DNA from: Torymus aiolomorphi
Taxonomy: Eukaryota; Arthropoda; Insecta; Hymenoptera; Torymidae
Reading direction: 5' to 3'
NCBI GenBank assembly: GCA_036365515.1
Contig: CM070873.1
Span: forward strand, 21,131,257 to 21,195,256
DNA: 64,000 nucleotides
Positions 2,251-48,619 of this stretch are shown in pieces (position 1 is the first letter of the stretch; every line of letters starts with the position of its first letter). Below the pieces are notes generated by a model. That model saw nothing but the letters and a program-made list of their open reading frames with translations, did no database searches and was not told the DNA's origin. The translations under genes and the position numbers were made by a program.

Positions 2251-3558
<1,308 letters not shown>

Positions 3559-3679
3559 TGAGTCCTTGATATTAACGGTCGTGCTGTCCAGGGAGTCAGG
3601 GTGGTAAATGACAACCATATGTACTTTATTTCCTTGTCCTAACTCCTTGGACAGCATGACCGTTAATATCAAGGACTCA
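3559..3679. mobile_element. Short foldback MITE-like element
   Basis: TGAGTCCTTGATATTAACGG at the left end is matched by its reverse complement at the right end, giving arms of about 38 bp with few mismatches in a 121-bp unit. The core between the arms is unique. It sits between two copies of the diverged AT-rich direct repeat. No target duplication could be fixed. Confidence 0.6.
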
Positions 3680-4205
3680 AAAAAAAAGCCTAAATGATTA
3701 AGAAAAAAGGAGTTTATAAATAGTAAAGTAAATTTAGAAAAAAATGCATTTAAAAATAAAAATTTATTTATATCTTAAGTGATCTATGCGGATAAGTGAA
3801 CTGTGTAGAATGGACATGCATAAAAGTAATAAAAAGATTTCTCTGTGTATAATATAAAAATATATAATTTGCGACATAACTTGTGAAAAGTAAAACCATG
3901 ATTCTCATCAGTAAATTAAGTCTAAGATGGGCTTTTGCGTCAGAGCAATACACGTTTCAAAAGTGTTATGTTATGTTTCTGAAATTTAAGTTAAATGTAT
4001 AATTGAAGCTGGTTTCATACACGTAACTTAATGATAATTAATAACATTGTCTAAAACTTAACTTAATACAAAAAAATTATTAAAATTCTATTACATTTAT
4101 ATCTGAAATATCTTTGTTTTTTTTTAGCAAATGTATTTGTATAATATCATTACTTACATATTTTTAAAATTCTGTAACAATTGTAACTTAAACCTTTTTT
4201 AAATT
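3680..4205. other. AT-rich, gene-free
   Basis: The third copy of the diverged direct repeat lies near 3695-3810; after it I see only AT-rich sequence with no frame, splice pattern or repeat I can name. Confidence 0.5.
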
Positions 4206-4451
4206 TCTAAATATGTTGTAAGCGCTCGTGGTGCTATCTTAATAGTTTTGAATTTTTAATCGGACTTCAACGAGCAAATCTCTTATGCGTTAGTCGAATG
4301 TCTATTCTCAAATCGAGAAAAGTAGCTTTTGTTTAAGCTTCCTCCTCTCTCGATAAGAATTTTTTGACAAACGGCGACACACATAAGAGAAAATTTTTTT
4401 TTTTTTTTTTAAATGAATAACTATTAATTTCGGAATAAAATATAATATAGG

Positions 4452-4518
4452 GGAGTTTCGTCCTTGTCGTACTTGGTGGACTCGTCAGGAAGACCCAAGT
4501 AGACATATCTTCGACTCC
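4452..4518 (-). ncRNA. Type III hammerhead ribozyme, canonical core
   Basis: Read on the minus strand: stem III GGAG with UC at the cleavage site, stem I GAAGA/UCUUC, CUGACGA, stem II GUCC/GGAC, GAAA, then CUCC closing stem III. All conserved core positions are present. Loop I contains UACUUGG (plus-strand 4495-4501) and loop II contains CCAAGUA (4470-4476), which are perfectly complementary over 7 bases. That predicts the loop-loop contact that stabilises natural hammerheads. Cleavage is predicted after the C paired with plus-strand base 4513. Core and folding are read directly from the sequence; activity is inferred. Confidence 0.88.
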
Positions 4519-5064
4519 AAAATAATGAAATTACTGTGAATTCTTATAGTGTGTAAGTTGTAATTTTATATGTGGATTTGAAAAATTGGTTGCCATCTAG
4601 TGTTAAAAGGTTGGAACTAAGATTATACAAGGAAAGGCATTTTAGTGTCCGAATGCCATTTGATTCTAAATATGTTGTAAGCGCTCGTGGTGCTATCTTA
4701 ATAGTTTTGAATTTTTAATCGGACTTCAACGAGCAAATCTCTTATGCGTTAGTTTGTCAAAAAATTCTTATCGAGAGAGGAGGAAGCTTAAACAAAAGCT
4801 ACTTTTCTCGATTTGAGAATAGACATTCGACTAACGCATAAGAGATTTGCTCGTTGAAGTCCGATTAAAAATTCAAAACTATTAAGATAGCACCACGAGC
4901 GCTTACAACATATTTAGAATCAAATGGCATTCGGACACTAAAATGCCTTTCCTTGTATAATCTTAGTTCCAACCTTTTAACACTAGATGGCAACCAATTT
5001 TTCAAATCCACATATAAAATTACAACTTACACACTATAAGAATTCACAGTAATTTCATTATTTT

Positions 5065-5131
5065 GGAGTCGAAGATATGTCTACTTGGGTCTTCCTGACG
5101 AGTCCACCAAGTACGACAAGGACAAAACTCC
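5065..5131 (+). ncRNA. Type III hammerhead ribozyme copy with core mutation
   Basis: This is the same ribozyme in the inverted monomer: GGAGTC (5065-5070), GAAGA/TCTTC stem I, CTGACGA (5095-5101), GTCC/GGAC stem II and CTCC closing stem III. The invariant GAAA has become AAAA at 5124, the catalytic G12 position. The 7-base loop-loop complement (5082-5088 with 5107-5113) is intact. Loss of G12 is known to abolish or strongly reduce cleavage, so this copy is predicted inactive. Confidence 0.85.
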
Positions 5132-5253
5132 CCTATATTATATTTTATTCCGAAATTAATAGTTATTCATTTTAAAAAAAAAAAAAAAAAAATTTTTTCT
5201 CTTATGTGTGTCGCCGTTTGTCAAAAAATTCTTATCGAGAGAGGAGGAAGCTT

Positions 5254-5716
5254 AAGGCCATGTGATACTCAAATGAAAATCCCTACCTTACCGATATGTC
5301 GGTAACAGACTGTATATTGAGTAATAATTAAATTATGAATAATTTTTTTAACAAAAACGCTCTGTCAGGCGCTCGGGAATTCTTCGAAGATGATTATGTC
5401 AAAGTTTCACAATTGAAATAATAACTGTCATCGAGTTATTTAGTTTTTAGTCATATTTTTTAGCTAAAAATTGAATAACAGCTCGAATATACATCGGATT
5501 TGCGTGAAATTTAACACATATGCTTGTTGTATCATTTGCGAGCGCCTGACAGTCTTCTTTTTTTGAAAGTCGCCAAACAGTATTATTTTATTTTTTTACA
5601 TAAATAAACTTCCGACACTAAGTTGTGAGGTTGGCATCACTTCTATATCACTATCGTAAAATGGCAGACAGTAAGGCATACCAACCTTTTTCACGCGATG
5701 TATTTGTTTACGTTGT
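5254..5716. other. Gene-free AT-rich stretch
   Basis: No coding frame or structured repeat was found. The first 20 bases (TTAAGGCCATGTGATACTCA) resemble the reverse complement of sequence flanking the foldback at 22.1 kb, so this may be a shared repeat edge. Confidence 0.4.
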
Positions 5717-6429: not shown

Positions 6430-7960
6430 GGAAATACGGGTCCGCGAAAATTTTTGTAAATAGCCTATAAAGGAGTTTTCACTGAGAAAGTTATTATTGT
6501 GGAGAGAATTCCCGATCAAACCAAGCTTCTCAAGTAATATTTATTATATTTTGTAACAAATAGAAATATGTAAATTATTAAACAATTTTTTTCCGCGCGA
6601 TTTTGCGAAATGCGCATGCACGACATTATTTGTAAAAAGCTTATGAAAGGGTTTTGATTGCGGAGTTATGATTTCAGAGTTATGATTGCGGAACGATTTC
6701 CCAAAGAAATCAAAGCTTCTCAAATAATATTTGTTATATCTTGTAACAAATACGAATTTATACATTATTAAACAATTTTTTTCCACGCGATTTTTCGAAA
6801 TACGTCTGCGCGACATTTTTTGTAAAGAGCTTATGAAGGGGTTTTCCTACATAGCTATGATTGCCAAACGATTTCCCCAAGAAATCAAAGCTTCACAAGT
6901 AATATTTGTTGTATCTTATAACAAATACAAATTTATAAATTATTAAACAATTTTTTTCCCTACGCGATTTTTCGAAATACGTGTGAGCGAAATTTTTTGT
7001 AAAGAGCTTATGAAGGGGTTTTCCTACATAGCTATGATTACCGAACGATTTCCCGAAGAAATCAAAGCTTCACAAGTAATATTTGTTATCCTTGTAACAA
7101 ATACAAACTTATAAATTTTTAAACAATTTTTTTCCACGCGATTTTCCGAAATACGTGTGCGCGAAATTTTTGTAAAGAGCTTATGAAGGGATTTTCCTAC
7201 ATAGCTATGATTGCCGAACGATTTCCCGAAGAAATCAAAGCTTCACAAGTAATATTTGTTATACCTTGTAACAAATACAAATTTATAAATTTTTAAACAA
7301 TTTTTTTCCACGCAATTTTGAGAAATGCGCATGCGCGACATTTGTTGTAAAGAGCTTATGAAGGGGTTTTCGTACAGAGTTGTGATTGCCGAACGATTTC
7401 CCAATGACATCAAAGCTTCTAAAGTTACATTTGTTATATCTTGTAATAAATACAAATTTATAAATTATCAGACAATTTTTTTCCACGTAATTTTGCGAAA
7501 CACGCATGCACGACATTTTTTGTAAAGAGATTATGAAAGGGTTTTCGTTCAGAGTTATGATTGCGGAACGATTTCCCGAAGAAATCGAAGCTTCACAAGT
7601 AATATTTGTTATATCTTGTAACAAATACGAATTTATAAATTATTAAACAATTTTTTCCGCGTGATTTTTCGAAATACGTTATGCGACATTTTTTGTAAAG
7701 AGCTTACGAAGGGGTTTTCGTATAGAGTTATGATTGTCGAACGGTTTCCCAATGACATCAAAGCTTCTTAAGTAATATTTATTATATCTTGGAACAAATA
7801 CACATTATTTATAAATTATTAAACAATTTTTTTCCACGCGATTTTCCGAAATACGTGTGCGCGACATTTTTTGTGAAGAGCTTATGAAGGGGTTTCCTTC
7901 ATAGCGATGATTGCGGAACGATTTCGTAATGACATCAAAGCTTCTTAAGTAATATTTATT
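6430..7960 (+). repeat. Satellite array, ~175-bp monomer, about 9 units (orientation A)
   Basis: The box GCGACATTTTTTGTAAAGAG recurs near 6443, 6618, 6808, 6986, 7159, 7334, 7509, 7682 and 7861, at spacings of 173-190 bp. Between boxes the monomers share TATGAAGGGGTTTT, GAACGATTTCCC, AAATCAAAGCTTC and a run ending AAACAATTTTTTTCC, with obvious divergence. Several short frames in the array are by-products of the repeat. The reverse complement of the box defines the 17-20 kb array. Confidence 0.9.
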
Positions 7961-8218
7961 AGGCACGACCGCTACTCGGGAGAGCCTTATAATTTCACCA
8001 GAGTGAAAATTGTAAGAATACAAATACCGAATATTTCATGTGTAAAAACCATTTTCCACTCAGAATAAGTGCGTTATGTATGTCTGTACGTCCGTATGTG
8101 CGCAAGTTACTCCATTATCTCAATGAATTTTCAATAGATTTCATCAGGATTGCGCGAAACACTCATCTAATTACACCTAAGTGACAGTTCTCTAGCGAGA
8201 ACAATCGATAAAAAAATT
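7961..8218. other. Spacer between arrays
   Basis: The satellite stops at a GC-richer word (GGCACGACCGCTACTCGG). After it comes a stretch with GTATGTCTGTACGTCCGTATG, a pattern common in insect repeats. Nothing codes. Confidence 0.4.
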
Positions 8219-12240: not shown

Positions 12241-13524
12241 TTATCAAGAGCACTTGCGTACACTGTAGGTGGCAACCGACAGGTGCCTGACGGTTAACAT
12301 GTGGTCATATGATAACATAGCAGCCAGCGGCGAGTCGCAGAATTCGTCCGAGCGCCCCGAGCGCCGCCGAGGCTCCCTTAGGCCGTCGATCTTGCAGTTG
12401 CGTCGCCGCACTGCGCAGGCGAGATTTGGCAACACTGCGGTTTTACGTAGTAAAGAGCGACAACAACACGAGCGGACGCGTCGACGCCGGCACGCCGCGC
12501 CTGCGCGAGAACAGTAATGGGCGCTGAAGACACATACACACAACGCGGACGCTATAGTTGTAGAAAGTACATCACCGAGGCCGGGAATGCTACGGCGATG
12601 ATGCAATTGACTGAAGTTTACTCTCCCGCGACTGATTCGTGTAAGTACTTTACTTCGAACTAAGACTTTATTCCGTTGTATTTGTAGTATAGCCGAACCT
12701 AACCTCTAAATTTTCATCTGCCCTCTTCCCTAGCAGTTCAATACTGCTCTCCTCATTCCTAATACTTGACGTATTATTAATACATTTTGTTTTGCCTAAA
12801 GTGAAGAGCTGCTGTAGATGACCACGCGCTTCAACGTAATTCTACTTCTCTCGAGGGAAGCCGGTGCAGCTATCTTTCCCCAAGGACATTACCGAGTCGA
12901 ACAGGACGGAGAAACGACGGCGATGATGCAGTTGAATTAGGTCCATGCTCCCGCGACTGAATTGGGTAAGTACTTCACTTCTGACTGGGACTTTATTTTG
13001 TACTATTTGTTGTATAGCCGAACCTAACCTCCAAATTTTCACCTGCCTTGTTCCCTAACCCCAGCAGTTCTATACTGCTCTCCTCAATCCTTATGCTTGA
13101 CAAATTATTAATATACTTTGTTCTGCTTAAAGCGAAGAACTGCTGTAGATGACGACGCACTTCAACGTAATTCTACTTCTCTCCTCTCGAGAGAAGCCGG
13201 TGCAGCTATCTCTTCCCAAGGACATTACCGAGGCGAACAGGACGGAGGAGCGACGGCGATGATGCAGTTGAATAGGTCCATGCTCCCGCGACTGAATTGG
13301 GTAAGTACTTCACTTCTGACTGGGACTTTATTTTGTACTATTTTTTGTATAGCCGAACCTAACCTCCAAATTTTCACCTGCCTTGTTCCCTAACCCCAGC
13401 ATTTCTATACTGCTCTCCTCATTCCTTATGCTTGACAAATTATTAATATACTTTGTTCTGCTTAAAGCGAAGAGCTGCTGTAGATGACGACGCACTTCAA
13501 CGTAATTCTACTTCTCTCCTCTCC

Positions 13525-13526
<2 letters not shown>
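12241..13526 (+). repeat. Exon-like tandem cassettes, subfamily 1 (3.3 copies of ~330 bp)
   Basis: Units start GTGAAGAGCTGCTGTAGATGAC, carry ACGGCGATGATGCA and CTCCCGCGACTGA, and end at a splice-donor-like GTAAGTACTT at 12641, 12966 and 13301. Between donor and next unit lie AGCCGAACCTAACCT and pyrimidine-rich sequence, but the acceptor AG is eroded here (CCTAAA). The first unit begins in a GC-rich, CpG-rich block (12320-12560) that could be a promoter. Stops occur in all frames of the unit core, so it is not coding. A tandemly duplicated noncoding transcript is the best reading, but transcription is not shown. Confidence 0.5.

Positions 13527-13599
<73 letters not shown>
13527..13599. repeat. 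(TA)n microsatellite truncating a cassette
   Basis: A run of about 36 TA units interrupts the fourth subfamily-1 cassette some 60 bp after its start. Confidence 0.95.
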
Positions 13600-13602
<3 letters not shown>

Positions 13603-14117
13603 CGCGCTCGAACGTACAACACACGACAAGAGCTATAGATAACTCGGAAATCGTTGAATTCACGCGATGCTATGCACTTAGGGTCGTGTATCCCCGCGCG
13701 GGCACACGCAAAGGCCTCTTCCCGAGGATAAACTGCGAGAAAGAGAGAAAGAAAGAACATACAGGCTCTTTTGGTTGCTACACAAGGAGACCTACTATAG
13801 TGTTCATGATGGTGACTCCTGCTGGCTCTCTGCATGAGTCATCCATGTCACTGCTTGCTTACTTGCCATCCATGGAAACTTTCGATGAAACTCGATTTAA
13901 TGGCCTTTATGCAACTTTGCTCCATCTGCTTTATGAATAAAAACATGCCGATTTACTTGAGCTAATTCGATGCTGAAAAATGCTTGATATTCCTATGATG
14001 ATTTTGATGCTGTTCTTGTTTATTAATATTTTGTTTTTCTACAGGAGCTACAGCAAGGCTTCTTTGTGCTCCGCCTGTACCAATTTAATCATGTTTTAAA
14101 TTTACTTTCTTGCCTAG
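13600..14117. other. Unassigned sequence between cassette subfamilies
   Basis: Moderately GC-balanced sequence with a short open stretch (13686-13940) that lacks any motif I recognise and is probably chance. The last 80 bases are the intron-like pyrimidine lead into the first subfamily-2 cassette. Confidence 0.4.
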
Positions 14118-15382
14118 GGTGAAGAACTGCTGTAGATGACATCAACATCTTGAGCTGCTGCTGTTACCGGTTTTCTTTTTATTTGGACCAAATGATGGAG
14201 TGATTTATGTGGACATCGGCAACCCCTGAACTTTTTGGAAAAATTTTGTGGTGAGTAGTTTGCTGTAAGAAGGTTAACTTTTTTACTATACAAGTAACAC
14301 CTATCCTGCAACTCTTCCCTTCCCTTTGACAGAAGCATGGCTTCTCTGTGCTCCTCCCGTACCAATTGAATCATGTCCTAAATTTACTTTCTTGCCTAGG
14401 GTGAAGAGCTGCCGTAGATGACATCAACATCTTGAGCTGCTGCTGTTACCGGTTTTCTTTTATTTGGACCAAATAATGGAGTGTTTTATGTGGACATCGG
14501 CAACCCCTGAACTTTTTGGAAAAATTTTGTGGTGAGTAGTTTGCTGTAAGAAGGTTAACTTTTTTTTTTACTATACAAGTAACACCTATCCTGTAACTCT
14601 TCCCTTCCCTTTGACAGAAGCATGGCTTCTCTGTGCTCCTCCCGTACCAATTGAATCATTTTTTAAATTTACTTTCTTGCTTATGGTGAAGAGCTGCCGT
14701 AGATGACATCAACATCTTGAGCTGCTGCTGTTACCGGTTTTCTTTTTATTTGGACCAAATAATGGAGTGTTTTATGTGGACATCAGCAACCCCTGAACTT
14801 TTTGGAAAAATTCTGCGGTGAGTAGTTTGCTGTAAGAAGGTTAACTTTTTTTTTTACTATACAAGTAACACCTATCCTGCAACTCTTCCCTTCCCTTTGA
14901 CAGAGGCATGGCTTCTCCGTGCTCCGCCCTTACCAATTTAATCATGTTTTAATTTTACTTTATTGCCTAGGGGGAAGAGCTCCTGTAGACGACAACAACG
15001 TCTTGAGCCTGATACCGTTTTATTTACTAGGACCAGATGGTGGAGGCATGCATTTTATGTGGACACCGGCAACCTTTGGAACCTTTTGGAAAAATTTTCC
15101 GGTGAGTAGTTTGCTGTAAGAAAGTTTACAGCTTTACTACAGCTGAAACCTATCCTAAAACTCTCTTCTTTCCCTTGGCAGAAGCGTGGCTTCTCTGTGC
15201 TCCTTCTGCTGCCAACTTGTTCCTGTTTTAATTATGTTTTATTGCCTAGAGCGAAGAGCTCGTGTAGACGACATCGCGACGTCTTGAGTTGCTGTTGTCG
15301 CAGTTTTGCTATATCATCAGCCATGTTCACTTGTTGCTGTATGGTAAGGAGTTACGATTATGTGAGGAGTAAGGCGCATTCG
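14118..15382 (+). repeat. Exon-like tandem cassettes, subfamily 2 (5 copies, ~283-bp period)
   Basis: Exon-like blocks of 131-133 bp start at 14118, 14400, about 14685, 14971 and 15250. Four are preceded by a polypyrimidine tract and TTGCCTAG, while the third has TTGCTTAT and has lost the AG. All end at GTGAGTAG or GTAAGTAG donors (14251, 14532, 14818, 15102, 15383). Each block carries the GAAGAGCT and GTAGA words, so stops appear in every frame. Spacers keep TTTGCTGTAAGAA and CCCTTTGACAGAAGC, a possible second acceptor. Shared opening words tie this to subfamily 1 upstream. A spliced noncoding RNA with duplicated exons is inferred. Confidence 0.55.
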
Positions 15383-15769: not shown

Positions 15770-16960
15770 GAGGGAGGGTCGGGTGGTCTCAGTTGGAAAT
15801 GTAAATGCGTCTTTTCGACTTTTGAGTTGAAAAGAGGCTTTTCCCTTCTCGGCAAATATTTTAAACTTTAGACACACTATAGTATACATGCTGAGGGATT
15901 GTATATCAAGTTTGAGATCTAAATAATCAGCGAGTAGATCTGAAATTAGATGTACAATTTCTCAGCATGCATTGCATTGTGTGTCAACATTCTGTTAAAC
16001 TCTAAGCGAGGGTCAGGAGGTCTTAGTTGGAAATGCACATGCGTCTTTTCGACTTTTGAGTCCAAAAGATGCGTTTTCATTCGCTACAAATATTTCAAAT
16101 TATACACACACTATATTATACATGCTGAGGGATTGTATATCAAGTTTAAGATCTAAATAATCACCAAGTGTGCAGTTATTGCCTTTTCTGTGTGTTTTTC
16201 AGGAAATTTTCAAGAAAAATGTTGTTTCCCCAACACTGGCTGATGGAAAAAGTCTGAAATTAAATATACAATCTCTCAGCATGTATTCCATTGTGTGAGG
16301 AAAATTTGGTAAACTCTAAGTGAGAGTCAGGTGGTCTTAGTTGAAAATGTACATTTGTCTTTTCGACTTGAGTCCAAAAGAGGAGTTTTCATTCTCTCAA
16401 AATATTTTAAACTTTACACACACCATGCAATACATGCTGAGGGACTGTTTATCGAGTTTCAGATCTAAATAATCAGAAAGGGTGGAGATATTGCAATTTT
16501 TTGTGCCCTTTTCAAGAAATTTTCAAGAAAAAAGTTATGTCCTCCATACTGGCTGATTGAGTAGATCTGAAATTAGATGTACAATTTCTCAGCATGCATT
16601 GCATTGTGTGTGAACATTCTGTTAAACTCTAAGCGGGGGTCAGGAGGTCTTAGTTGGAAATGCACATGCGTCTTTTCGACTTTTGAGTCCAAAAGAGGCG
16701 TTTCCACCCGCTAAAAATATTTCAAATTATACACACACTATGTTATACATGCTGAGGGATTGTATATCAAGTTTAAGATCTAAATAATCACCAAGTGTGC
16801 AGTTATTGCCTTTTTTGTGGGTTTTACAGGAAATTTTCAAGAAAAATGTTATTCCCCCAACACTGGCTGATAGAAAAAGTATGAAATTAAATATACAATT
16901 CCTCAGCATGTATTACATTGTGTAAGGAAATTTTGGTAAACTTTGAGGGAGGGTCAGGTG
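15770..16960. repeat. Tandem repeat, 4 diverged units of ~233-315 bp
   Basis: CATGCTGAGGGATTGTATAT recurs at about 15888, 16121, 16433 and 16748 (third copy with small changes). Units also share GGTCTTAGTTGGAAATG, TCTTTTCGACTTTTGAGT and TACAATTTCTCAGCATG. The last word is inverted relative to TACATGCTGAGG, so each unit contains a small internal inverted repeat. The length difference reflects an extra block (TTTTCAAGAAAAATGTT) in the longer units. Confidence 0.85.
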
Positions 16961-19900
16961 GTCTCAGTTGCAGTGCTATTCCGCGCGGACAGTGTGTCGA
17001 TAGCGTAGATCCCTGTATATTTTTATTACCATAACCTAACTATAAATTACCATCTGAGCTACGCCAGACTCAGCAATTTACTCCGACGTCCTCTTAAATC
17101 GTTAGTCGGCAGAAACTTTCTGCACAAAATGGCTTGACTTGCTATTTACAAAAAATGTCACGCACACAGATTTCGTTGAATTCCGGCAAAAGAATATTGT
17201 TAAAGCGTCTAGAAATTGTTAATTATGATAAAATTTATTGTTTACGTCCATCTTGATTTGGGAATGGGTTGTTAGCCAAAAGAGCGGCTATAAAAAACAC
17301 TTCACAGACTCTTTACAAAAAATGTCGCGCGCGCGGACTTCCGCCGAATATTAAGAAATTAAATGTTTTCAACTATTATAAATTGGTATTTACAATTTAG
17401 TTACAGGCGATATCGCTTACTATGTTCTATTTAATGATAAAATCGTCCATCGGCAGAAACTTTCTGCAAAAACCCTTCACAGGCTCTACAAAAAATGTCG
17501 CGTGCTCGTATTTCCGCCAAATATTGCGAAATTATATGGTTTCAACTATTATAAATTCGTAATTATTACTTAGTTAATTGCAAATTTGGTTATTAGTTTA
17601 TATTATATCTTTATGTCGTCCATGGGCAGAAGCTTTCTACAGAAAAAGGCTTCACATACTCTTTACAAAATATGTCGCGCAAACGGATTTCGTTCAAATT
17701 ATGATAAAATTCATTGATTACGCCCATCTTGATCTGGAAATGGGTTGGGAGCACAAAGTGCCGCCATCAAAAATGCTTCGCAGGCTCTTTACAAAAAATG
17801 TCGCGCGCTGGTATTTCCGCCAAATATTGCGAAATTACATGTTTCAACTATTATAAATTTGTAATAATTAGTTAGTCAAATGCATATTTTGTTATTAGTT
17901 TATATTATATCTTTATCTCGTCCATGGGCAGAAGCTTTCTACAGAAAACGGCTTCACATGCTCTTTACAAAATATGTCGCGTACACGTACTTCGTTGAAA
18001 TCCGGTAAAATAATATTGTTAAAACGTCTAGAAATTGTTAATTATGAGGCAATTCATTCATTACGTCCACCTTGATTTGGAAATAGGTTGTTAGTCAAAA
18101 GTGCCGCTGTCCAAAACCCTGCACAGGCTCTTTCCAAATATATCGCGCGCACGCATTTTAACCAAGTATTGCGAAATTTCATTGTTTCAACTATCACAAA
18201 TTGGTAATTATTAGTTAAATTCAAATGAAGTTATTTGTTTGTATATAATCTTTAAATCATTCATCGGCAGAAACTTTCTGTACAAAATGGCTTCACATGC
18301 TCTTTACAAAAAATGTCGCGCAAACAGATTTCGTTGGAATCCGGCAAAAGAAGATTGTTAAAGCGTCTAGAAATTGTTAATTATGATAAAATTTATTGAT
18401 TACGTTCATCTTGATTTGGGAATGGGTTAGCCAAAAGTGCGGCTATAAAAAACCCTTTACAGACTCTTTACAAAAAATGTCGCGCGCGCGGACTTCCGCC
18501 GAATATTAAGAAATTAAATGTTTTCAACTATTATAAATTGGTATTTACAATTTAGTTACATGCGAATTCGCTTACTAGGTTATATTTAATGTTAAAATCG
18601 TCTATCGGCAAAAACTTTCTGCACAAAACCCCTTCACAGGCTCTTTACAAAAAATGGCGTTGCTCGTATTTTCGCCAAATATTGCTCAATTACATGGTTT
18701 CAACTATTATAAATTGGTAATTATTAGTTAAGCTCAAATTAAGTTATTCGTTTGTATATAATCTTTAAATCGTTCATCGGCAGAAACTTTTCACACAAAA
18801 AGGCTTCACATGCTCTTTACAAAAAATGTCGCGCACACGGATTTCGTGGAAATCCGGCAAAAAAATATTGTTAAAGCGTCTAGAAATTGTTAATTATGAT
18901 AAAATTTATGGATTACGTCCACCTTGATTTGGGAATGGGTTGTTAGCGAAAAGAGCGGCTATAAAAAATACTTCACAGACCCTTTTAAAAAAATGTCGTG
19001 CGCGCGGATTTCCGCCGAATATTAAGAAATTAAATGTTTTCAACTATTATAAATTGGTATTTACAATTTAGTTACATGCGAATTCGCTTACTAGGTTATA
19101 TTTAATGATAAAATAGTCCATCGGCAGAAACTTTCTGCACAAAAACCCTTCACAGGCTCTTTACAAAAAATGTCGCGCGCTCGTATTTCCGCCAAATATT
19201 GCGAAACTACATGGTTTCAACTATTATAAATTTGTAATAATTAGTGAGTCAAATGCATATTTGGTTATTAGTTTATATTATATCTTTATATCGTCCATGG
19301 GCAGAAACTTTCTACACCAAAAGTCTTCACATGCTCTTTACAAAATATGTCGCGCACACGGATTTCGTTGAAATTATGATAAAATTCATTGATTACGCCC
19401 ATCTTGATCTGGAAATGGGTTGGGAGCACAAAGTGCCGCCATCAAAAACGCTTCGCAGACTCTTTACATAAAATGTCGCGCGCTGGTATTCCCGCCAAAT
19501 ATAGCGAAATTACATGGTTTGAACTATTATAAATTTGTAATAATTAGTTAGTCAATTGCAAATTTTGTTATTAGTTTATATTATATCTTTATCTCGTCCA
19601 TGGGCAGAAACTTTCTACACAAAAAGGCTTCACATGCTCTTTACAAAAAATGTCGCGCACACGGATTTCGTGGAAATGCGTCAGAAGAATATTCTTTAAA
19701 CGTCTAGAAATTGTCTATTATGATAAAATTCATTAATTACGTCCATCTTGATTTGGGAATAGGTTGTTAGCCAAAAGTACGGCTATCAAAAACCCTTCAC
19801 AGATTCTTTAAAAAAAATGGCGCGCGCTCGGACTTCCGCGGAAATTAAGAAATTAAATGGTTTCTACTATTATAAATTGGTAATTACAATTTAGTTACAT

Positions 19901-20030
19901 GTGAATTCGCTCACTAGGTTATATTTAATGTTAAAATCGTCCATCGGCAGAAACTTTCTGCACAAAAAGTCTTCACAGGCTCCTTACAAAATATGTCCTG
20001 TATACGGATTTCGAAGAAATTCATGAATTT
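16961..20030 (-). repeat. Satellite array, ~172-bp monomer, about 18 units with ~1,675-bp higher-order period (orientation B)
   Basis: The box CTTTACAAAAAATGTCGCGC recurs near 17143, 17312, 17487, 17664, 17790, 17963, 18132, 18302, 18467, 18640, 18815, 18985, 19160, 19340, 19465, 19640, 19807 and 19983. Monomers come in types, for example one with GATTTGGGAATGGGTTGTTAG and one with CTTCCGCCGAATATTAAG. A short 125-bp spacing occurs twice, at 17664-17790 and 19340-19465, and the whole pattern repeats after about 1,675 bp. The same box in the other orientation marks the 6.4-8 kb array. Two nearly identical short frames (17578-17856 and 19244-19471) are satellite by-products. Confidence 0.9.
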
Positions 20031-22142: not shown

Positions 22143-22912
22143 CTTAAGGATGTACTGGCTATAAGATCGCCAAATGTTTGTGAATTCGATAAACTGTAAT
22201 AATTAATTGTATGAGATAATTGACCAAATTTAAGTTCTTGTGGGTGATTCAGGAGTATAATACGAATATAATAAGCATTCAAAATTGAAAATAGAATAAA
22301 GATTGACAAAGTTCTGCTATTTTTTAGTTACAAAAACCGATTTATTAAGTAAATTTTTAATACTGAAAACGACAAAGTACCAAACTTTTAATTTTCATTC
22401 GATTTTTAATTTCTAAAGCTTATAATATTCCTATAGTGATCTGTAATCGATCGCGAGTATTGAAAATCGACTATTTATCCAATATAATTTGTGATTGCAG
22501 TTTATTCCTCGTACAGTCCCGGCCAAAAGTTAAGTGACTAATATTAAAACAACAATAACAAATTATGTAGGATAAATAGACAATTTTCAATGCTCGCGAT
22601 CGATTACAAATCATGACAGGAATATTGTAAGCTTTAGAAATTAAAAATCGAATGAAAATTATAAGTTTGGCACTTTGTCGTTTTCAGTATTAAAAATTTA
22701 CTTAATGATTCGGTTTTTGTAACTATAAAAAATAGCAGAACTTTGTCAATCTTTATTCTATTTTCAATTTTGAATGCTTATTATATTCGTATTATACTCC
22801 TGAATCACCCACAAGAACTTAAATTTGGTCAATTATCGCATACAATTAATTATTGCAGTTTATCGAATTCACAAACTTTTGGCAGGAACCTTATAGCCAG
22901 TAGATCCTTAAG
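22143..22912. mobile_element. Foldback element with ~350-bp arms
   Basis: Bases 22143-22497 recur inverted at 22557-22912 with scattered mismatches. The arms share GGGTGATTCAGGAGTATAAT and TCAAAATTGAAAATAGAATA. The loop of about 60 bp contains CAGTCCCGGCCAAAAGTTAA, which resembles Tc1/mariner terminal sequence, so a mariner-derived MITE pair is possible. No transposase is present. Confidence 0.75.
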
Positions 22913-24772: not shown

Positions 24773-26236
24773 ATGGATTTGAATAAAGCTGTGGTAATAC
24801 AAGCTATTGTGTATGAATCTTCAACTAGTTCAAGCAGTGACAGTGATATAGAAAATGAATTAGGTTTAGTACTGAATGATTACGAGCGTGGCGATCAAAA
24901 CGGAAATAGAAGACTTCGAGTACAGTACTTTATTGAAACTGTAATTTATAGATACACTGAAAAAGAATTTAAAGAAAATTATAGGTAAGTATACTGATGA
25001 AACATAATGTAATTTACTAGTATTTAATAATGAAATGATCTATCAAACTTTATTCAATATATGCAATTTTAATCAAATACTAATTATTTCAGAATGAATC
25101 GCACAACATTTTATTATTTATTACACCTAATAATATCAGATTTAGAGGGTAAAGTATTGGGATTTGGAAGACTCCAATTTCTCCTGAAAAACAATTATTT
25201 ATAGCACTATACTTACTTGGAACTCCAGATTCTTATAGGTATATATACATACATATTTACATTTTTATTATTATTCAAACTTTGTTTTTGACATTCTTAA
25301 TGTTTTATAGATCAGTAACTACAAATTTTGATGTTGGGAGAGCTACAGCTTGGCGTGCAGTGCACCGTAATGTAAAAGCTATCTGTAAGAACAGAAATTA
25401 TTTTATTTGTTGGCCTTCACAAAATGATGCAATTTCTATTTTTAGTAGAATTGAAGAAAGATATGGATTTCCAAAGGTATTAGGAGCAGTTGACGGTGCA
25501 CACATTGAAATTCCTGCTCCGAAAAGGGATTCTCAAAGTTATGTAAACCGCAAGGGTGCGCATTCAATCCAGTTACAAGTAAGTTGTTTTATTATTATTA
25601 ATATTTATATAGAGAATAATAATTTATACAGCAAAATTACATACAATTCTGCAAATTATTATCAATCACAAAGTATTCCAATATGTTTTTTCAGGTAATT
25701 TGTAATGATAAACTGGAGTTTATTCATTGCTATGTGGGACTTCCAGGATCAGTGCATGACATGAGAGTTTTTCAGTACTCTGGAGTACAACAAAGATGCA
25801 ATGCAGACTATTTCCCAGAAAATAGTCATTTATTAGGTGATTCAGCGTACAGTATTGAAAACCATGTCATGGTACCTTATCGAGATAATGGCCACTTAAA
25901 CTTGAAGCAAATTTCTTTAACAGAGTGTTATTCACGACAAGAATGATGGTAGAACGCTCTATTGGACTATTAAAATGTCGGTGGAGATATCTTATAGAAA
26001 AATTGCCTATGGGAAGAACCGACTTAATTCCCCATTGTATATTGTATATTGTGTTGCTGCATTCTACAATATTTGTCTAAATCAAGAAGATACTTTTGAT
26101 CTTGCTCTGATTCCTGCTCTGATTCCAAACACTATTGATATGGATCCCGCACCTCTACTTTTAAATAATGTTATACAAAATCCAGGAGCAGTGAAGAGGA
26201 ATGCAATTTGCCATTTTTTGGATAGAATTTTGTAGT
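24773..26236 (+). pseudogene. PIF/Harbinger transposase (HARBI1-like, DDE_Tnp_4), frameshifted, three introns
   Basis: Exons are bounded by GT-AG introns at 24986-25092, 25239-25310 and about 25580-25694. The catalytic triad is visible: D in GAVDGAHIEIPAP, D in HLLGDSAYSIEN and E in MVERSIGLLKCRWRYL. GLPGSVHDMRVF lies between the first two, as in HARBI1 relatives. These transposases cut and paste elements with 3-bp TWA targets together with a trihelix partner protein. The frame is broken near 25,165 (before the SPEKQLFIALYLLGTPDSYR stretch), near 25,940 and again near 26,040, so this copy is dead. Trihelix-type partner genes lie 6-8 kb downstream. Confidence 0.88.
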
Positions 26237-26257: not shown

Positions 26258-26979
26258 CGCCCTGTTGAAAATATCCATGTGGATTTTACATTGATTTCCA
26301 CATGGAATCCATATGGAATCCATATGGAATCTATACGGATTCCATATGGATTCCACGTCGATTCCATGTGGAAATCAGTCCCAAATCGTCCTGTGGATTT
26401 CCACATGGAATTCCATATAGATTTCTATATGAATTTTTCTACAAACATTTGTAAAACAAAATCCGTATGGATTTCCATGTAGATTTCCATGGAGAAATCC
26501 AGGTAAAAACGATATGATCCATATAGATTTCCATATGGATTTTCATGTGGTAATTTAAATGTTTATAAAAATGTTTATTTATAAAATTTTTAAATTTTTT
26601 TACTAGGGATACGTTTTTTACCATGTCAGTAAAGCATAAAAAATTATAAACTATAATTTCCTCTTATGTAATTCTTCGAAAAGATTCTACAGTACTTGTT
26701 GTCAAAAATATGTATCCTAGTAAAAAAAAAATATAACAATTTTATAAATAAACATTTTTATAAACATTAAAATTACCATATGGAAATCCATGTGGAAATC
26801 TATATGGATCATGTCGTTTTTATCTGGATTTCCCCATGGAAATCTACATGGAAATCCATACGGATTTTGTTTTACAAATGTTTGTAGAAAAATTCATATA
26901 GGAATCTATATGGAATTCCATGTGGAAGTCCACAGGACGATTTGGGACTGATTTCCACATGGATATTTTCAACAGGGCG
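26258..26979. mobile_element. Foldback MITE ending CGCCCTGTTGAAAATATCC
   Basis: The first ~20 bases are inverted exactly at the right end, and similarity between the arms continues for over 250 bp. The arms are built from short self-complementary words such as ATCCATATGGAT repeated many times, giving nested hairpins. It starts about 22 bp after the degraded Harbinger gene. The end sequence resembles Harbinger-type TIRs, but no clean TWA duplication is seen. Frames through it are repeat artefacts. Confidence 0.75.
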
Positions 26980-28387: not shown

Positions 28388-28514
28388 TTTTTTGTATTGC
28401 AACGTAGTTACATCTTAACATATTTAACATGATCGCTCCTATAGCATTCAATATTGAAGCAATATTATCTTAATATTGCTTTGACATATTCTCTATATTC
28501 GTTAATGTTCCCAC
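28388..28514. other. Short AT-rich spacer
   Basis: Links the hairpin-ended repeat to the next foldback. It carries ATTGAAGCAATATTATC-type words like those inside the foldback arms, so the foldback may extend slightly outward. Confidence 0.35.
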
Positions 28515-29554
28515 AACGTTAGTATATATGGAGGCAACCATGGAGCAATATTGCTGCAAACCATGATTTCCGTTTCTCCATTGCTTTTGTCAAATGATGG
28601 ATTATGCTATACATGATAGCAATATTGCAGCAATATTCATCTAATATTTGACAACGTCTGAATGAAATATTGGGTATATTTATAATTATACTTTTTGCAG
28701 ATTTTTCTTTTGATTTTGGAATACTGCAACAATATTCCCTTAAGACACAATAATACTACAGAGTAGTACAATAATACTAAACCTAAAATTTTAAATGTTT
28801 ATTTATGTTTTAAAATCATTCTTTAAAACGAAATTAATCTATTTCACATAAAATTTTGAGTCCCCATTGTAAAGGGGATATCAAAAACAAGGCAAACCTT
28901 GTAATTCGGACTCTTCGGAAAGATACATTTGAACGGTTGGATTGCACGGCTTATATACTCTCGGCCATCCAGTGTAACCACAGAAAGCGCTATCGGCGTG
29001 CCGCATAGCGGATAAATAGCAGAAGCTTGCTTGTCGAGAGCCGGCCATCACAAGTTCCCCTTTGTCACCGCTATGTGGCGCGCCGATAGCGCTTTCTATA
29101 GATACACTGGATAGCAGAGAGTATATAAGCCGTGTAATTCAACCGTTCAAATGATTCTTTACGAAGAGTCCGAATTACAAGGCTTGCCTTGCTTTTGATA
29201 TCCCCTTCACAATGGGGACTCAAAATTTTACGCCTTATCTATGTGAAATAAATAAATTTCGTTTTAGAGATTGACTTTAAAACATAAACACTTAAAATTT
29301 AATGTTTCTATATAATGTTATTGAGTCTTTGGGGAATATTGTTGTAGTATTTCAAAATGGGAAGAAAAATCTGTAAAAAGTATAATTATAAATATACCCA
29401 ATATTTCTCAGCCGTTGTCAAATATTGGACGAATATTGTTGCAATATTGCTATTATGGATAGCCTAACCCATCATTTTACAAAAGCAATGGAAAAATGGA
29501 AATTATGGTTTGCAGCAATATTGCTCTATTGTTGCATCCTTATATACTAACGTT
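28515..29554. mobile_element. Foldback element with ~490-bp arms and a 56-bp GC-balanced loop
   Basis: Arms 28515-29011 and 29068-29554 are inverted copies with moderate divergence, starting AACGTTAGTATATA. The outer arms repeat GCAATATTGCTGCAA-like palindromic words. The inner arms hold CTTATATACTCTCGGCCATC and AGAAAGCGCTATCGGCG. The loop (about 29012-29067) contains TTGTCGAGAGCCGGCCATCA and is not repeated. There is no reading frame. The whole unit could form a hairpin of nearly 500 bp. Confidence 0.85.
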
Positions 29555-30529
29555 GATTGTATTGAGTGTTACAGGGGGAGTAGGTACCCTTTTAATAATC
29601 AATCAATAGCCACTAAACTAATCGTCTTTTCAATATAGAGAAGAATAGGAGACTTTCGAGCAGGAATAAAACTATACATACTGTACATTTCTATTGTTAC
29701 AAATATTAAAATAACATTTTGAAAATGTCTGAAATTAAAATATACATTTGGAATTAAAAAATTTACTTACGGCATTGAAATATAATAATTAAATATTCAT
29801 CATAATTGAAGTATACTACATGTACAGTCTTATCCCCATTCAATAATGATGCACTCTCCGGTACTTTACTTTTTAATAAATAATTGAATGACAGCATTGA
29901 ACTATGCTTAAATACGGTATATGATCAATAATCAAGTGATTAATCTCATAATATCACAAATCGTAATCTTCAATTTTCGATCTTATTACATGTAGATAAT
30001 ACGCAAGTGTATGAAAGCCTGATATTGAACACGTGATGGCTTCCAATATACAAAAGCTAAATTATTGCCCGACAATCCAAGGAAGTAAATACAACCAAGT
30101 AAATATTATGTCTGAACTACAACTAAATATTACATAATATGACTAATATTTAAATAATTAATTTCATAATATCACAAATTGTAATTTTCAATTTTCATTG
30201 TTATAGCATATAGATAATAAACAAGTGTACAGAAGCCTGTTATTGAACAAGTGAACGCTTCCAATAGACAAGAGGTAAATTATTTATTATCCGACAATAC
30301 TGAAGTATATCTATCATTCCTATTATATCTTATTTTTTAAGAGTTTCGACTAAATCTTGCATAACAGCTAATTTTCTCTCTCTATAATTTTCTGTGTTTT
30401 CTCTTTTTAATCGCTTGATTTCTAATTTTCAGTGCTTCTAGTGCTAATTTTGGATGCTCTATAAAAACGAGAATAAAATCACGTAATTATGAAATGGTTT
30501 AATCAGTTATTACTAATATATATAAATAT
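29555..30529. repeat. AT-rich region with a twofold ~225-bp direct repeat
   Basis: ATCTCATAATATCACAAATC near 29,941 and its neighbours recur near 30,165 (ATTTCATAATATCACAAATT), with shared AAGTGTA, GAAGCCTG, TATTGAACA and GCTTCCAATA words. The remainder is AT-rich, without genes. Confidence 0.65.
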
Positions 30530-32455
30530 ATACATACTTAAGTTAGTTGGCGACGATTGATTAATATCTAAATTGCCTAACAGCATATTAGTTCCAGCCT
30601 CAGACAGTGGCTTAATCCACGGCTTCTTTTGAAATAATTCATCGAGCTCCTAAATTAAAAAAAAATAATAAATTGATTTTTTTGTAATACATCATAAAAT
30701 ATATTAGATTTTTTTAGGAGAAAATAGATGCTCAAACTGTATGCAAATAATATAAATACGTATCATTACAAAATTACTTCATAACAATTACACGTCTTTT
30801 TGTCATTACCGCTTTAATTATTGTGATCTTTCATATTTTTGTGAGCTCTTTCAACGGAATCCATTTTTGACGTACACTGAATAGTACTTACATTATACCA
30901 TTTGCATATCATGCCATCAGTTATTTCTTTTTCAAAATTTTTTATAAGTTAAATTGCCTTCACTATAAGCAGCATCGTTTTCTTTATATAAGTGGATTAG
31001 TAGAAGCGTTTCCGGATTATTCCAAGCATAACGACCAGTCTCTTAAAAAATATAATAGTATATTATGCACCAAGGGAATAAAGTGGGCTGTGTGCTCCCT
31101 GCGCGAGAGTTGTCGCCTGAGCGAAGCGAGGGCGACAAACGCGCAGGTTCGCACAACCCACTATATTCACGAGTGCAATATACGACTTTTTAATACAACT
31201 ATCATACAGTTCGTACTCGTTTCCCGCTGAAAAGGGAAAAAGGCTGCATATTGATTCCCTAACCTCACTCTCGTTTCCAGCGCAACGCACTGTTTGCGCC
31301 CGAGCCGAAGGCGAGGGCACATGTGCGTGGCGCTGGGGACTAGAGTGGGGGTAGGGAATGAACGTAGCACTTTTTTCCCACTTCAGCGGGAATAAAGTAC
31401 GAACTTTATGATGGGGTGTGTTAAAAAATAGGCTTTTATTTATTTTATGTAAATTGTTTTTTAAACAATCGTATATCAGTTATTTCTATACGTACTCACT
31501 TTTACTACTGATTTCATCATCTTCAATATTATCGTTTTCATATATTTCAATGAGCTTCTTCAATTCATCACTGTTATTTTGTATTCTATTAGTATTATTA
31601 CTAATTTTTTCAATGTCCGTTGATAGACTATTTGATTTTTGTTGATGAATTGCTGCCTTGTGTTACTCTAATAGCTGTGTCGGAAACAACATATCTGTAA
31701 CAAAATTATTTTATTTGATACACACGTAACTTGTTTAATGTAAATTTAAAAATCTACCTGTCGGAGCACGGTTAAAAGTTTCTAGGTCAACAAAAAGAGT
31801 AAAGCTCTCCATTGTTACAGGTTCAATGAGCGTCAATTCAAATGCAGCACCTTTTTCAACATTGAATACTCCTTCTTTCAGGGTAGCAGTATCTCTTTGA
31901 AATTCACTGTTACGTATATTTGATGAAGTATGTTATATCACATTACATGAACTGCTCAAAGCCGATAAGTGCTCATGCAATAGTTCAGTTGCGTATGCTA
32001 AATCTAAAATAAAGAGCATATGTATGTTAATTTACTTAGCTTATTTTGTTATCAACATTATATTAAAAAAATAGACTTTACCTTTTAAGGCTTGATCACG
32101 CTTTGCAACAGGAACCTTTAAAGAATGCACTTGATGTGATGCATCCATTAATTATAATTCAACTAAATTATTAGTTTTGATTAGTTCTGAGCTTTTCTAC
32201 ATCATTTAACATTTTCTGTCTATAATTTGGATCTAAAATTATAAGAATAGAAAGATGTTACTATGTACAATATTATAAGAAAGCACAATATCTAAGCTAG
32301 ACCACATTCGTATAACCTAATGTATTGTGCTTTACCTAAGTTATGTACTTACTATTTTCGACTCTTACAACATCTTCAAGATTTACAAGAACCTTGAAGG
32401 TTTCTTTAGTTATTGGGTCTAATAAAGCTACTTGCTTTCGCTTTGCACTATCCAT
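30530..32455 (-). pseudogene. Trihelix (Myb/SANT-like) Harbinger-associated gene, left palindrome arm
   Basis: The start MDSAKRKQVALLDPITKETF (32455 downwards) is the first exon. A second exon (about 31,760-32,005) encodes the stretch with FELTLIEPVTMESFTLFVD. A later exon (about 30,790-31,041) encodes TGRYAWNNPETLLLIHLYKE and, beyond it, KMDSVERAHKN and SGNDKKT. That is the spacing of a trihelix DNA-binding domain as found in Harbinger-type partner proteins. The last exon holds ELDELFQKKPWIKPLSEAG. Introns have GT-AG ends. The domain's central Trp is replaced by a TGA stop and other breaks follow, so the copy is dead. An inserted GC-rich block lies in the intron before the trihelix exon. Confidence 0.65.
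31045..31430. mobile_element. GC-rich insertion private to the left arm
   Basis: Absent from the matching intron of the right arm. Contains CTGAGCGAAGCGAGGGCGAC and CGAGCCGAAGGCGAGGGCAC. GGGAATAAAGT occurs near both ends in the same orientation (31077 and 31390), suggesting terminal direct repeats. No reading frame is convincing. The class is unknown. Confidence 0.55.
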
Positions 32456-32545
32456 TGCTCTAAAATTTGAAACTTTAACTGAAACACAGATTGTATTCAA
32501 AATTAACTGGACGATCAGCTGATTATTGTTTTGAGATACGGAACA

Positions 32546-32655
32546 CAGCTCCAGTAGTCGTAAGTTGTTCTTGACCATTCCAGGACGTGAATGTCATCCA
32601 CTGAAATTGCTCCGTTGCCAGATTTACTTACTGTTCCAGTATCGGAATATACCCC
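32546..32655. promoter_or_regulatory. Palindrome spacer, likely shared 5' region
   Basis: Matches sequence upstream of the HARBI1-like gene in inverse orientation and contains the MSSTEIAP-type start on the plus strand. It lies between two divergent trihelix gene copies, so a bidirectional promoter is plausible. Confidence 0.35.
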
Positions 32656-32740
32656 GTATTTCAAAACAGTAATCAGCTGATCGCCGAGTTAAATTAGAAT
32701 AAAATCTGAGTTTCAGTTACAGTTTCAAATTTAAGAGCAA

Positions 32741-35479: not shown

Positions 35480-36452
35480 CGCGCGCGCACCCACACGGAG
35501 AGAAGTCCGAACGCCTGTGGACCGCTCGCGCTCAGAGCGAACGCTACGCCATCGCGCGCGCCCTGTGTATGACCGTGTGCGCGCGCGTATTTGATGTTAA
35601 TAGATGGACGGACTGTCGGCTGTGCCCGAGTGTCTCTCCACCGTGCGCGCGCTGTGTTGCAAGCGGCGCGCATCGCTCTCGATCGTGTCTGCACGGTGTT
35701 TCGCCCTGCAATCCGAGGCCAAATCAGCCACTTTCGTTCAAGTAATCTTGAACCATTTCTTTCCGCACACAACTGTAAAATCATGGGAACCACTATGCTT
35801 TCTTATGTATTTTGATCCGTAGAATCCAAATATTCAAGTCTCTTTACGATCAAATTTGTGCAAATTGTTTAAAATGCAATTATTTAAATAATTTACAAAT
35901 TGTTGTTTTTTGCTATCGGAGTATTTTTTTTCTAAAAATATACATTATTTCATGATGAAAATGTCCTTCCAACTACTATTAAAAAGTGAAAATTAACAGT
36001 TATAATTTTTTGAAATTTATTGAAATTTCTCGACGCAAATTTTTTTTTGTTTAAACTCGCTGCCATTTCCTTCCCATTGAACCGATTGCTTTGAAATTTT
36101 GAGAAAAGATTCTTGAAGGCTATCCGCGGCTCATAAGCTTATTAAAATATCTTCAAATATTTGCAAAACGCAACGGCAATTTTTTAACAACAAAAAGTCA
36201 CAATCACAAATTTTTATCTTCCACGACAAAAGTTGTGTTACGAAATTTCGATTTGACATAATCTAACTGTTTAGTATTGAAATTTAATAGTTAAAGAAGC
36301 TCTCTGCCAAGTTTTAGATCTCTAGGTTAGAAGGGTGCGAAATGGTTCCGAAATTCGCAGCCGCGGTGTACCGCGCGCTCGGTCTGTCTGACACGCTCAT
36401 GAACGCGGTTGCATATAATCGCAATAATTCAATGGTTTTAATATCTAGAGAT
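35480..36452. repeat. Left long inverted arm of a nested composite element
   Basis: Found inverted at 50085-51385 continued at 52391-52455. The GC-rich part (to about 35,740) holds CTGTCGGCTGTGCCCGAG. The AT-rich part holds ATTTAGTATTGAAATTTAAT and GCGCGCTCGGTCTGTCTGAC. The frame starting MDGLSAVPE is present in both arms only because the arms are copies. These arms bracket a degenerate transposase gene, so they may be its long TIRs. The outer ends could not be fixed. Confidence 0.75.
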
Positions 36453-46873: not shown

Positions 46874-46877
46874 TTAT

Positions 46878-48600: not shown

Positions 48601-48619
48601 TATATGCTCTGACTCGGAT

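What the first reader, a model, noticed from the sequence alone, without database searches (positions are those of the whole stretch)
4206..5253. Complete type III hammerhead ribozyme in a ~460-bp repeat, with a 7-bp loop-loop match
Seen: all hammerhead core elements in order, three stems, and a perfect 7-base complement between loops I and II, in a repeat with a direct period of 459-464 bp. Known: hammerhead satellites and retrozyme-type repeats in animals produce unit-length, often circular RNAs. Inference: this repeat is transcribed, self-cleaves into monomers and may circularise, making it a small noncoding mobile RNA family not obviously tied to any protein here.
Basis: partly seen in the sequence, partly recalled or inferred. 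Interest (0 to 1): 0.9.

Follow-up and report, generated by a model that had tools for sequence, protein, structure and literature searches.

The report
Genomic imprint of a ribozyme circle
A stretch of probably insect DNA holds two mirror-image copies of one 460-base noncoding unit, each running past a full turn from a different starting point and each carrying the sequence of a predicted self-cutting (hammerhead) RNA, a pattern most likely left when a small circular RNA was copied back into the chromosome.

Summary
On the minus strand, 4518-4452 has every core base of a type III hammerhead, three stems and a 7-bp loop I/loop II match. Arm A is 549 nt (1.2 units), arm B 504 nt (1.09 units); they start and end at different points of the unit, none at the predicted cleavage site. 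They differ by one substitution, which changes the catalytic base G12 to A in arm B, plus homopolymer lengths. I read this as a young insertion made by reverse transcription, primed from both sides of the target, of a circular (or multimeric) retrozyme-like RNA. A Penelope-type enzyme is the likeliest machine: its insertions are often head-to-head, and one lies in this window in that form. Described animal retrozymes carry type I hammerheads; a type III one in a probably hymenopteran genome is a new variant of a known kind. Transcription, cleavage, circularity and copy number are untested; the genome search did not complete.

The parts
4205..4753 (-). Arm A: 549 nt = one 459-nt unit plus 90 nt of a second turn; sense reads 4753 to 4205
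4752..5255 (+). Arm B: 504 nt = one 464-nt unit plus 40 nt of a second turn; sense reads 4752 to 5255; 1 substitution in 459 aligned positions from arm A plus 5 nt of homopolymer length
4452..4518 (-). Type III hammerhead with intact core; predicted cleavage between 4513 (C17) and 4512
5065..5131 (+). Second hammerhead, identical except G12 to A at 5124; expected to be nearly inactive (inferred from PMC2553840)
   Evidence: (RF00008, 29.9 bits)
4495..4501 (-). Loop I segment UACUUGG, complementary to loop II
4470..4476 (-). Loop II segment CCAAGUA, complementary to loop I
4664..4753 (-). First copy of the 90-nt terminal direct repeat of arm A
   Evidence: 90 of 90 identical
4205..4294 (-). Second copy of the 90-nt terminal direct repeat of arm A
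4752..4791 (+). First copy of the 40-nt terminal direct repeat of arm B
   Evidence: 40 of 40 identical
5216..5255 (+). Second copy of the 40-nt terminal direct repeat of arm B
4752..4753 (.). Head-to-head junction with 2-nt microhomology (GT); sense 5' ends of both arms meet here
4394..4410 (-). Internal A17 tract downstream of the hammerhead in arm A
5174..5192 (+). The same tract in arm B, A19

Best explanation
This locus is two head-to-head copies of one 459-464 nt noncoding unit, each longer than a full turn, each starting and ending at a different point and each carrying a type III hammerhead sequence; it was most likely made by reverse transcription of a small circular RNA that the hammerhead would release. 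The proposed cycle: a tandem master copy elsewhere would be transcribed, cut into monomers by the hammerhead and ligated into a circle (inferred). A reverse transcriptase, likely of the Penelope type, would then copy the circle twice, once from each nicked strand of the target. Each cDNA would start inside the circle, go past the joined cleavage site and more than once around, and the two cDNA 3' ends would be joined through 2 nt of microhomology (inferred). Shown directly: the permuted arms longer than one unit, the head-to-head junction, the near-identity of the arms, the intact core of arm A and G12A in arm B. This copy has one hammerhead per arm and so would be unable to make new circles by itself.
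For: Arms of 549 and 504 nt of the same unit with exact 90- and 40-nt terminal repeats. In unit coordinates arm A starts at 79 and ends, after a full turn, at 168; arm B starts at 1 and ends at 40; none of the 4 ends lies at the predicted cleavage site (after 319), so the template was not a cleaved linear monomer. The arms differ by 1 substitution in 459 positions plus 5 nt in a T/A/T homopolymer tract, so both likely came from the same or nearly the same template, recently. Copying arm A back on itself cannot give arm B: the mirror match from arm A's outer end stops after 168 nt, where the left flank would follow, but arm B (504 nt) goes on for 336 nt of unit. Sense 5' ends meet in the centre, as expected if both target strands primed cDNA; a purified Penelope-like protein cleaves and extends both strands and starts inside its RNA (PMC11167929, part 1 of 4 and passages). 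In rotifer Penelope copies head-to-head is called the most frequently observed inverted form, and an insertion without target duplication is described (PMC3846280, passages). The window has a Penelope-like element with RT and GIY-YIG (Pfam E 1.7e-5 and 3.2e-4, both just under Pfam's own cut-offs; 184 relatives at E up to 0.001), head-to-head over 647 nt at 98%. [quoted passage not shown] The longest frame around the circle is 68 aa.
Against: No second locus could be examined: the 3 viral contigs patterns and the 1 genome contigs pattern found nothing and the genome search did not complete (11 of 11 tries). No target-site duplication was found. The window is rich in palindromes: one search lists 13 self-inverted stretches of 100 nt or more, this one included, so the head-to-head form is not unique to it. 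The rotifer study explains head-to-head Penelope copies by self-priming on an antisense template, not by priming from both target strands. In one search the unit matched nothing else in the window but an A-rich 20-mer at 57405-57424, so it shares no sequence with the Penelope element. A multimeric linear RNA would explain the arms nearly as well as a circle. Without pseudoknots the 67-mer folds into a different hairpin (-19.0 against -11.7 kcal/mol), and hammerhead stems I and II have probability about 0 in the pseudoknot-free ensemble; the 7-bp match could be that blocking hairpin rather than a loop contact. The circle is 52-56% paired, below the more than 70% described for other retrozymes (PMC4918200, passages).
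Confidence: 0.55

Rival explanations
1. The template was a linear multimeric transcript of a tandem array (a satellite read-through), not a circle; reverse transcription and two-sided priming are otherwise the same.
For: Arms longer than one unit and ends away from the cleavage site need only a repeating template. In vitro a Penelope-like protein uses RNA not processed by its hammerhead as the dominant substrate (PMC11167929, passages). Axolotl retrozymes also make multimeric RNAs (PMC7229834, part 3 of 6).
Against: The second-turn stretches match the first exactly in both arms (90 of 90, 40 of 40), with no sign of differences between neighbouring units; no array of the unit in this window.
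Confidence: 0.2
2. A DNA event: a piece of a tandem satellite array was inverted and duplicated (fold-back repair or a fold-back transposon), and the hammerhead is a passenger.
For: Many palindromes in the window (13 self-inverted stretches listed, this one included), so fold-back processes may be common in this genome.
Against: Fold-back copying of arm A alone cannot make arm B without a jump of exactly one unit. Of 11 self-inverted stretches inspected, the hammerhead element is the only one whose two arms each carry an exact terminal direct repeat; 4 of the other 10 have direct repeats of 69-95% identity, 2 of them (16417-16612 and 36228-36542) in or beside tandem arrays. Neither flank is repeated in the other flank, so it is not a whole-read fold-back artefact either.
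Confidence: 0.15
3. It is an integrated copy of an infectious, viroid-like or delta-like circular RNA.
For: Delta-like circular RNAs of a toad and a termite carry type III hammerheads with loop I/II pseudoknots, and related motifs lie in termite and fly genomes (PMC7936874, parts 1-3 of 4).
Against: No CUGANGA or CGAAAC on the opposite polarity of the unit, no Rfam ribozyme there up to E 5, no frame over 68 aa, so no delta antigen; unit 459-464 nt against about 1500-1700 nt.
Confidence: 0.05
4. The hammerhead is a chance resemblance in an ordinary repeat.
For: Rfam score below the gathering cut-off; pseudoknot-free folding favours another hairpin.
Against: All core bases, three stems, permitted cleavage triplet; E 0.0022 over 64 kb and 4227 families; 1 descriptor hit in 60 random windows; loop match in 0.85% of shuffles.
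Confidence: 0.04

Closest known systems
Animal non-LTR retrozymes (Cervera and de la Pena 2020, PMC7229834, parts 1-3 of 6)
   Same: Small noncoding A+T-rich unit with a hammerhead; proposed circular RNA intermediate; Penelope-like elements present in the same genomes
   Different: Those have type I hammerheads, RNAs of about 170-400 nt and tandem copies; this has type III, 459-464 nt, and a head-to-head pair of permuted arms with one hammerhead each
Plant LTR retrozymes (PMC4918200 and PMC7761336, passages; PMC7229834, parts 1-3 of 6)
   Same: Type III hammerhead; circular RNA; predicted fold of the circle blocks the hammerhead
   Different: Those are 600-800 nt circles, with two hammerheads in ~350-bp LTRs, 4-bp target duplications and GC over 55%; here GC is 32-33%, there is one hammerhead per arm and no adjacent 4-bp duplication
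Type III hammerheads with loop pseudoknots in delta-like RNAs and in termite and fly genomes (PMC7936874, parts 1-3 of 4)
   Same: Type III in an insect; long loops with Watson-Crick loop I/II complement
   Different: The toad and termite ones have an extra hairpin on helix I and a 6-bp stem II; in termite genomes they are isolated motifs; that study's search of hymenopterans for this architecture found none
Penelope-like element insertions (PMC3846280, passages; PMC11167929, part 1 of 4 and passages)
   Same: Head-to-head inverted copies, partial tandems, internal initiation, microhomology junctions
   Different: They encode RT and GIY-YIG; their own hammerheads are minimal type I

Membership tests
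Hammerhead ribozyme, type III architecture | Conserved core (CUGANGA ... GAAA, NUH cleavage site) in order | tested here: met
   Arm A; arm B fails at G12
Hammerhead ribozyme, type III architecture | Three stems with helix III open | tested here: met
   stem III 5, stem I 6, stem II 4 bp
Hammerhead ribozyme, type III architecture | Loop I/loop II tertiary contact | tested here: inconclusive
   7-bp complement, reached in 1695 of 200000 shuffles, but the same bases form a competing hairpin
Hammerhead ribozyme, type III architecture | Self-cleavage | not testable with these tools
   no assay
Rfam RF00008 (curated family) | Score at or above gathering cut-off 48.5 | tested here: not met
   33.6 and 29.9 bits; not filed as an RF00008 member
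Animal non-LTR retrozyme | Type I hammerhead | tested here: not met
   type III; no type I descriptor hit in the window
Animal non-LTR retrozyme | Noncoding, low-GC unit | tested here: met
   GC 32-33%, longest frame 68 aa
Animal non-LTR retrozyme | Unit of ~170-400 nt in tandem copies | tested here: not met
   459-464 nt; 1.2 and 1.09 units per arm
Animal non-LTR retrozyme | Expressed as circular RNA | not testable with these tools
   no RNA data
Animal non-LTR retrozyme | Highly self-paired RNA | tested here: inconclusive
   -83.9 kcal/mol against a mean of -68.3 (s.d. 5.5) for 100 shuffles, the lowest shuffle being -89.3; 52-56% paired
Plant LTR retrozyme | Two hammerheads in terminal repeats, adjacent 4-bp target duplication | tested here: not met
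   one per arm; no duplication
Plant LTR retrozyme | tRNA primer binding site and polypurine tract | not tested
   not searched
Viroid-like or delta-like RNA | Ribozymes in both polarities or delta antigen ORF | tested here: not met
Penelope-like insertion form | Head-to-head inverted copy with partial second turn | tested here: met
   for the locus; PMC3846280 passages for the form
Penelope-like insertion form | Sequence shared with an autonomous Penelope element | tested here: not met
   no match of the unit to the Penelope element in the window (no other Penelope element compared)

The most novel reading that the evidence does not exclude
A lineage of type III hammerhead retrozymes lives in hymenopteran insects and is moved by Penelope-type enzymes that copy an RNA circle from both sides of a cut at once, each cDNA running more than once around, so that single loci record the circle directly as permuted, head-to-head arms.
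Probability: 0.3. Interest if true: 0.75.

Novelty: new variant of a known kind. Interest (0 to 1): 0.52.

Why it matters
How circular hammerhead RNAs of animals return to the genome, and which reverse transcriptase does it, is open: a review says animal repeats show no conserved motif that tells the partner (PMC7761336, passages). A young locus whose two arms are permuted, longer than one turn and head-to-head would be a readable record of that step and makes it testable by surveying the ends of other copies. It also would put type III hammerheads, which the papers I saw report in animals mainly from delta-like RNAs and scattered termite and fly motifs, into a mobile element of another insect order.

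Tried and rejected
Tandem satellite reading: rejected for this locus, as the long direct repeats are only the 90- and 40-nt overhangs and no other copy lies in the window. miRNA hits of Rfam (MIR8007, MIR1888, MIR2606, mir-259): all below their cut-offs and explained by the inverted repeat. Endless or long ORF around the circle: none, longest 68 aa. Antisense hammerhead: no core. Type I hammerheads in the window: none by descriptor. A degenerate type I-like stretch by eye in the Penelope 3' region near 49951-49998 has no Rfam hammerhead support (its only match is an unrelated family at E 0.8). Pol III boxes (consensus recalled): no convincing A plus B pair. Target duplication: longest match between 60 nt of each flank is 6 nt, 25 and 46 nt away from the edges. 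Relatives: patterns in viral contigs and genome contigs gave 0; these collections are viral and bacterial/archaeal, so this says little. Two further protein searches meant to name the host gave 22 rows and 1 row, none naming an insect. Paper searches: no title or abstract start in the listings (25 of 32 papers listed; 20 of 22; 9 of 9; 20 of 22; 12 of 5,315; 15 of 55; 15 of 25) showed a type III hammerhead retrozyme in Hymenoptera; some searches were about mechanism. Two hits that looked promising (PMC12465672, PMC10886601; passages) were a shark reference and a remark on plant retrozymes. Passages of PMC2837043 and PMC6155905 gave background only.

Full report
What is there. The region 4205-5255 consists of two arms of one unit joined head-to-head. 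In the sense of the hammerhead, arm A reads leftwards from 4753 to 4205 (549 nt) and arm B rightwards from 4752 to 5255 (504 nt); they overlap by GT at 4752-4753. After rotating arm A's unit to arm B's start, the two units (459 and 464 nt) align with 1 substitution and 5 nt of length change in a T/A/T homopolymer tract. Arm A starts at unit position 79 and ends, after a full turn, at 168; arm B starts at 1 and ends at 40; the overhangs of 90 and 40 nt are exact.

The ribozyme. Arm A (4518-4452, minus) has all core bases of a type III hammerhead, GUC at the cleavage site and stems III, I and II of 5, 6 and 4 bp. Rfam RF00008 aligns end to end at 33.6 bits, E 0.0022 for the whole window and all 4227 families, under the gathering score of 48.5. 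A descriptor search gives this site alone in the window with GAA, one more with AAA (arm B), and 1 hit in 60 Markov windows. Loop I and loop II share a 7-bp complement, reached in 1695 of 200000 loop shuffles. A difference of two base pairs between stems I and II, as here (6 and 4), is said to go commonly with a loop pseudoknot in type III hammerheads (PMC3088659, passages).

Cautions on the ribozyme. The loop complement extends to an 11-bp imperfect hairpin, and without pseudoknots the 67-mer prefers that hairpin (-19.0) to the hammerhead (-11.7 kcal/mol); the 7-bp loop helix is worth -7.3 by itself, so the two states are close before loop penalties. In the folded circle the hammerhead stems have negligible probability. 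Plant retrozyme circles are likewise drawn with the hammerhead in a blocked conformation (PMC4918200, passages). So an on/off switch is possible, and the 7-bp match alone does not prove a helpful loop contact. The circle folds at -83.9 kcal/mol against a mean of -68.3 (s.d. 5.5) for 100 shuffles, though the lowest shuffle reached -89.3.

The one substitution between the arms is G12 to A in arm B (5124). G12 is the general base; the same change slows a hammerhead about 100,000-fold or more (PMC2553840, passages). Whether it is a copying error, a later mutation or a feature of the template cannot be told from one locus.

What this copy can do. Each strand of the locus holds one hammerhead core in sense, outside the 90- and 40-nt overhangs. 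A transcript could be cut once at most, and would also carry the other arm as a long complementary strand. It could not release a monomer.

How it was made. None of the four arm ends lies near the predicted cleavage site (unit position 319; ends at 1, 40, 79 and 168), so a cleaved linear monomer was not the template. A circle or a multimer was. Simple fold-back copying of arm A would have entered the left flank after 168 nt (mirror match 4205-4372 / 4752-4919), whereas arm B continues for 336 nt of unit. Two cDNAs primed from the two target strands on one repeating RNA give exactly this layout, with sense 5' ends meeting at a short microhomology. [quoted passage not shown]

The machine. A Penelope-like element lies at 46816-49452 (RVT_1 E 1.7e-5, 25 bits against a cut-off of 29.6; GIY-YIG E 3.2e-4, 21.4 against 22.6), backed by 184 relatives of its RT. 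Its arms 46873-47518 and 48620-49266 are head-to-head at 98% over 647 nt. In rotifers head-to-head is called the most frequently observed inverted form of Penelope copies, and an insertion without target duplication is described (PMC3846280, passages); that study, however, explains the form by self-priming on an antisense template. A purified Penelope-like protein cut and extended both target strands and started reverse transcription inside the RNA (PMC11167929, part 1 of 4 plus passages). Against the link, the same study found hammerhead cleavage unnecessary in vitro, the unit shares no sequence with the element here, and the window has many other palindromes: 13 self-inverted stretches of 100 nt or more, this one included. 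Of the 11 looked at, this is the only one whose arms both carry exact terminal direct repeats; 4 of the other 10 showed direct repeats of 69-95% identity. The 2 listed but not inspected are a TA run (2242-2844) and 3557-3681.

The host. Of the 184 relatives of the window's Penelope RT, 120 are listed, and only some name an organism; the first 7 rows that do are from Copidosoma (2), Ooceraea, Diachasmimorpha, Fopius, Temnothorax and Trachymyrmex at 36-42% identity. Copidosoma, Diachasmimorpha and Ooceraea were checked as Hymenoptera; the others are recalled as such. The next row with an organism, Haematobia irritans, is a fly (recalled). A mobile element is weak evidence for the host, so 'hymenopteran' is probable, not shown; two more protein searches did not help.

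Place among known things. Animal retrozymes carry type I hammerheads and give RNAs of ~170-400 nt (PMC7229834, parts 1-3 of 6), plant ones type III in LTRs (PMC4918200, passages). Type III hammerheads with loop pseudoknots occur in toad and termite delta-like RNAs and in termite and fly genomes; that study reported none of that architecture in hymenopterans (PMC7936874, parts 1-3 of 4). The element works like a retrozyme but fails two features of the animal family (hammerhead type; unit size and tandem form), so I do not file it there; it is best called a new variant. The paper listings, which are partly capped, showed no such element in Hymenoptera; the library lacks most subscription papers, and further type III examples in flies were announced as in preparation.

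Limits. One locus, no RNA data, no genome survey: the genome search did not answer in 11 of 11 tries. Transcription, cleavage, ligation, the identity of the enzyme and the host are inferences.

Noticed in passing
46816-49452: Penelope-like element with RT (minus) and two GIY-YIG copies in head-to-head arms 46873-47518 / 48620-49266, 98% identical over 647 nt; its minus-strand RT and GIY-YIG parts lie in different ORFs, so this copy looks inactive.
   Followed up: partly
42659-43928 and 46277-49942: 42659-43928 is the inverse of 46277-46876 joined directly to 49262-49942, i.e. a copy lacking the 2.4 kb between; the inverted pair brackets ORFs at 43996-46255, possibly a DNA transposon with long inverted ends.
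   Followed up: no
31517-33683, 28514-29555, 22143-22912, 26363-26963, 52515-53105, 53263-53813: Six further long self-palindromes (80-93%) in 64 kb; none shows exact terminal direct repeats.
   Followed up: partly
6675-7961, 12592-13527, 14052-15298, 15939-16970, 17288-20020: Several tandem arrays with units of about 173-343 bp; the descriptors found no hammerhead in them.
   Followed up: partly
5124: The only substitution between the two arms hits the catalytic G12, one of about 15 core positions in 459; possibly chance (about 3%), possibly because an inactive circle is a better template.
   Followed up: no
49951-49998: Degenerate type I hammerhead-like stretch (CTTGATAAGGGG...CCCGAAACGTC) near the 3' end of the Penelope copy, by eye only; no Rfam hammerhead hit.
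   Followed up: partly
25153-25698: ORF with a weak DDE_Tnp_4 match (E 0.0014, 18.7 bits against a cut-off of 24.8), perhaps a decayed Harbinger-like transposase (recalled).
   Followed up: no
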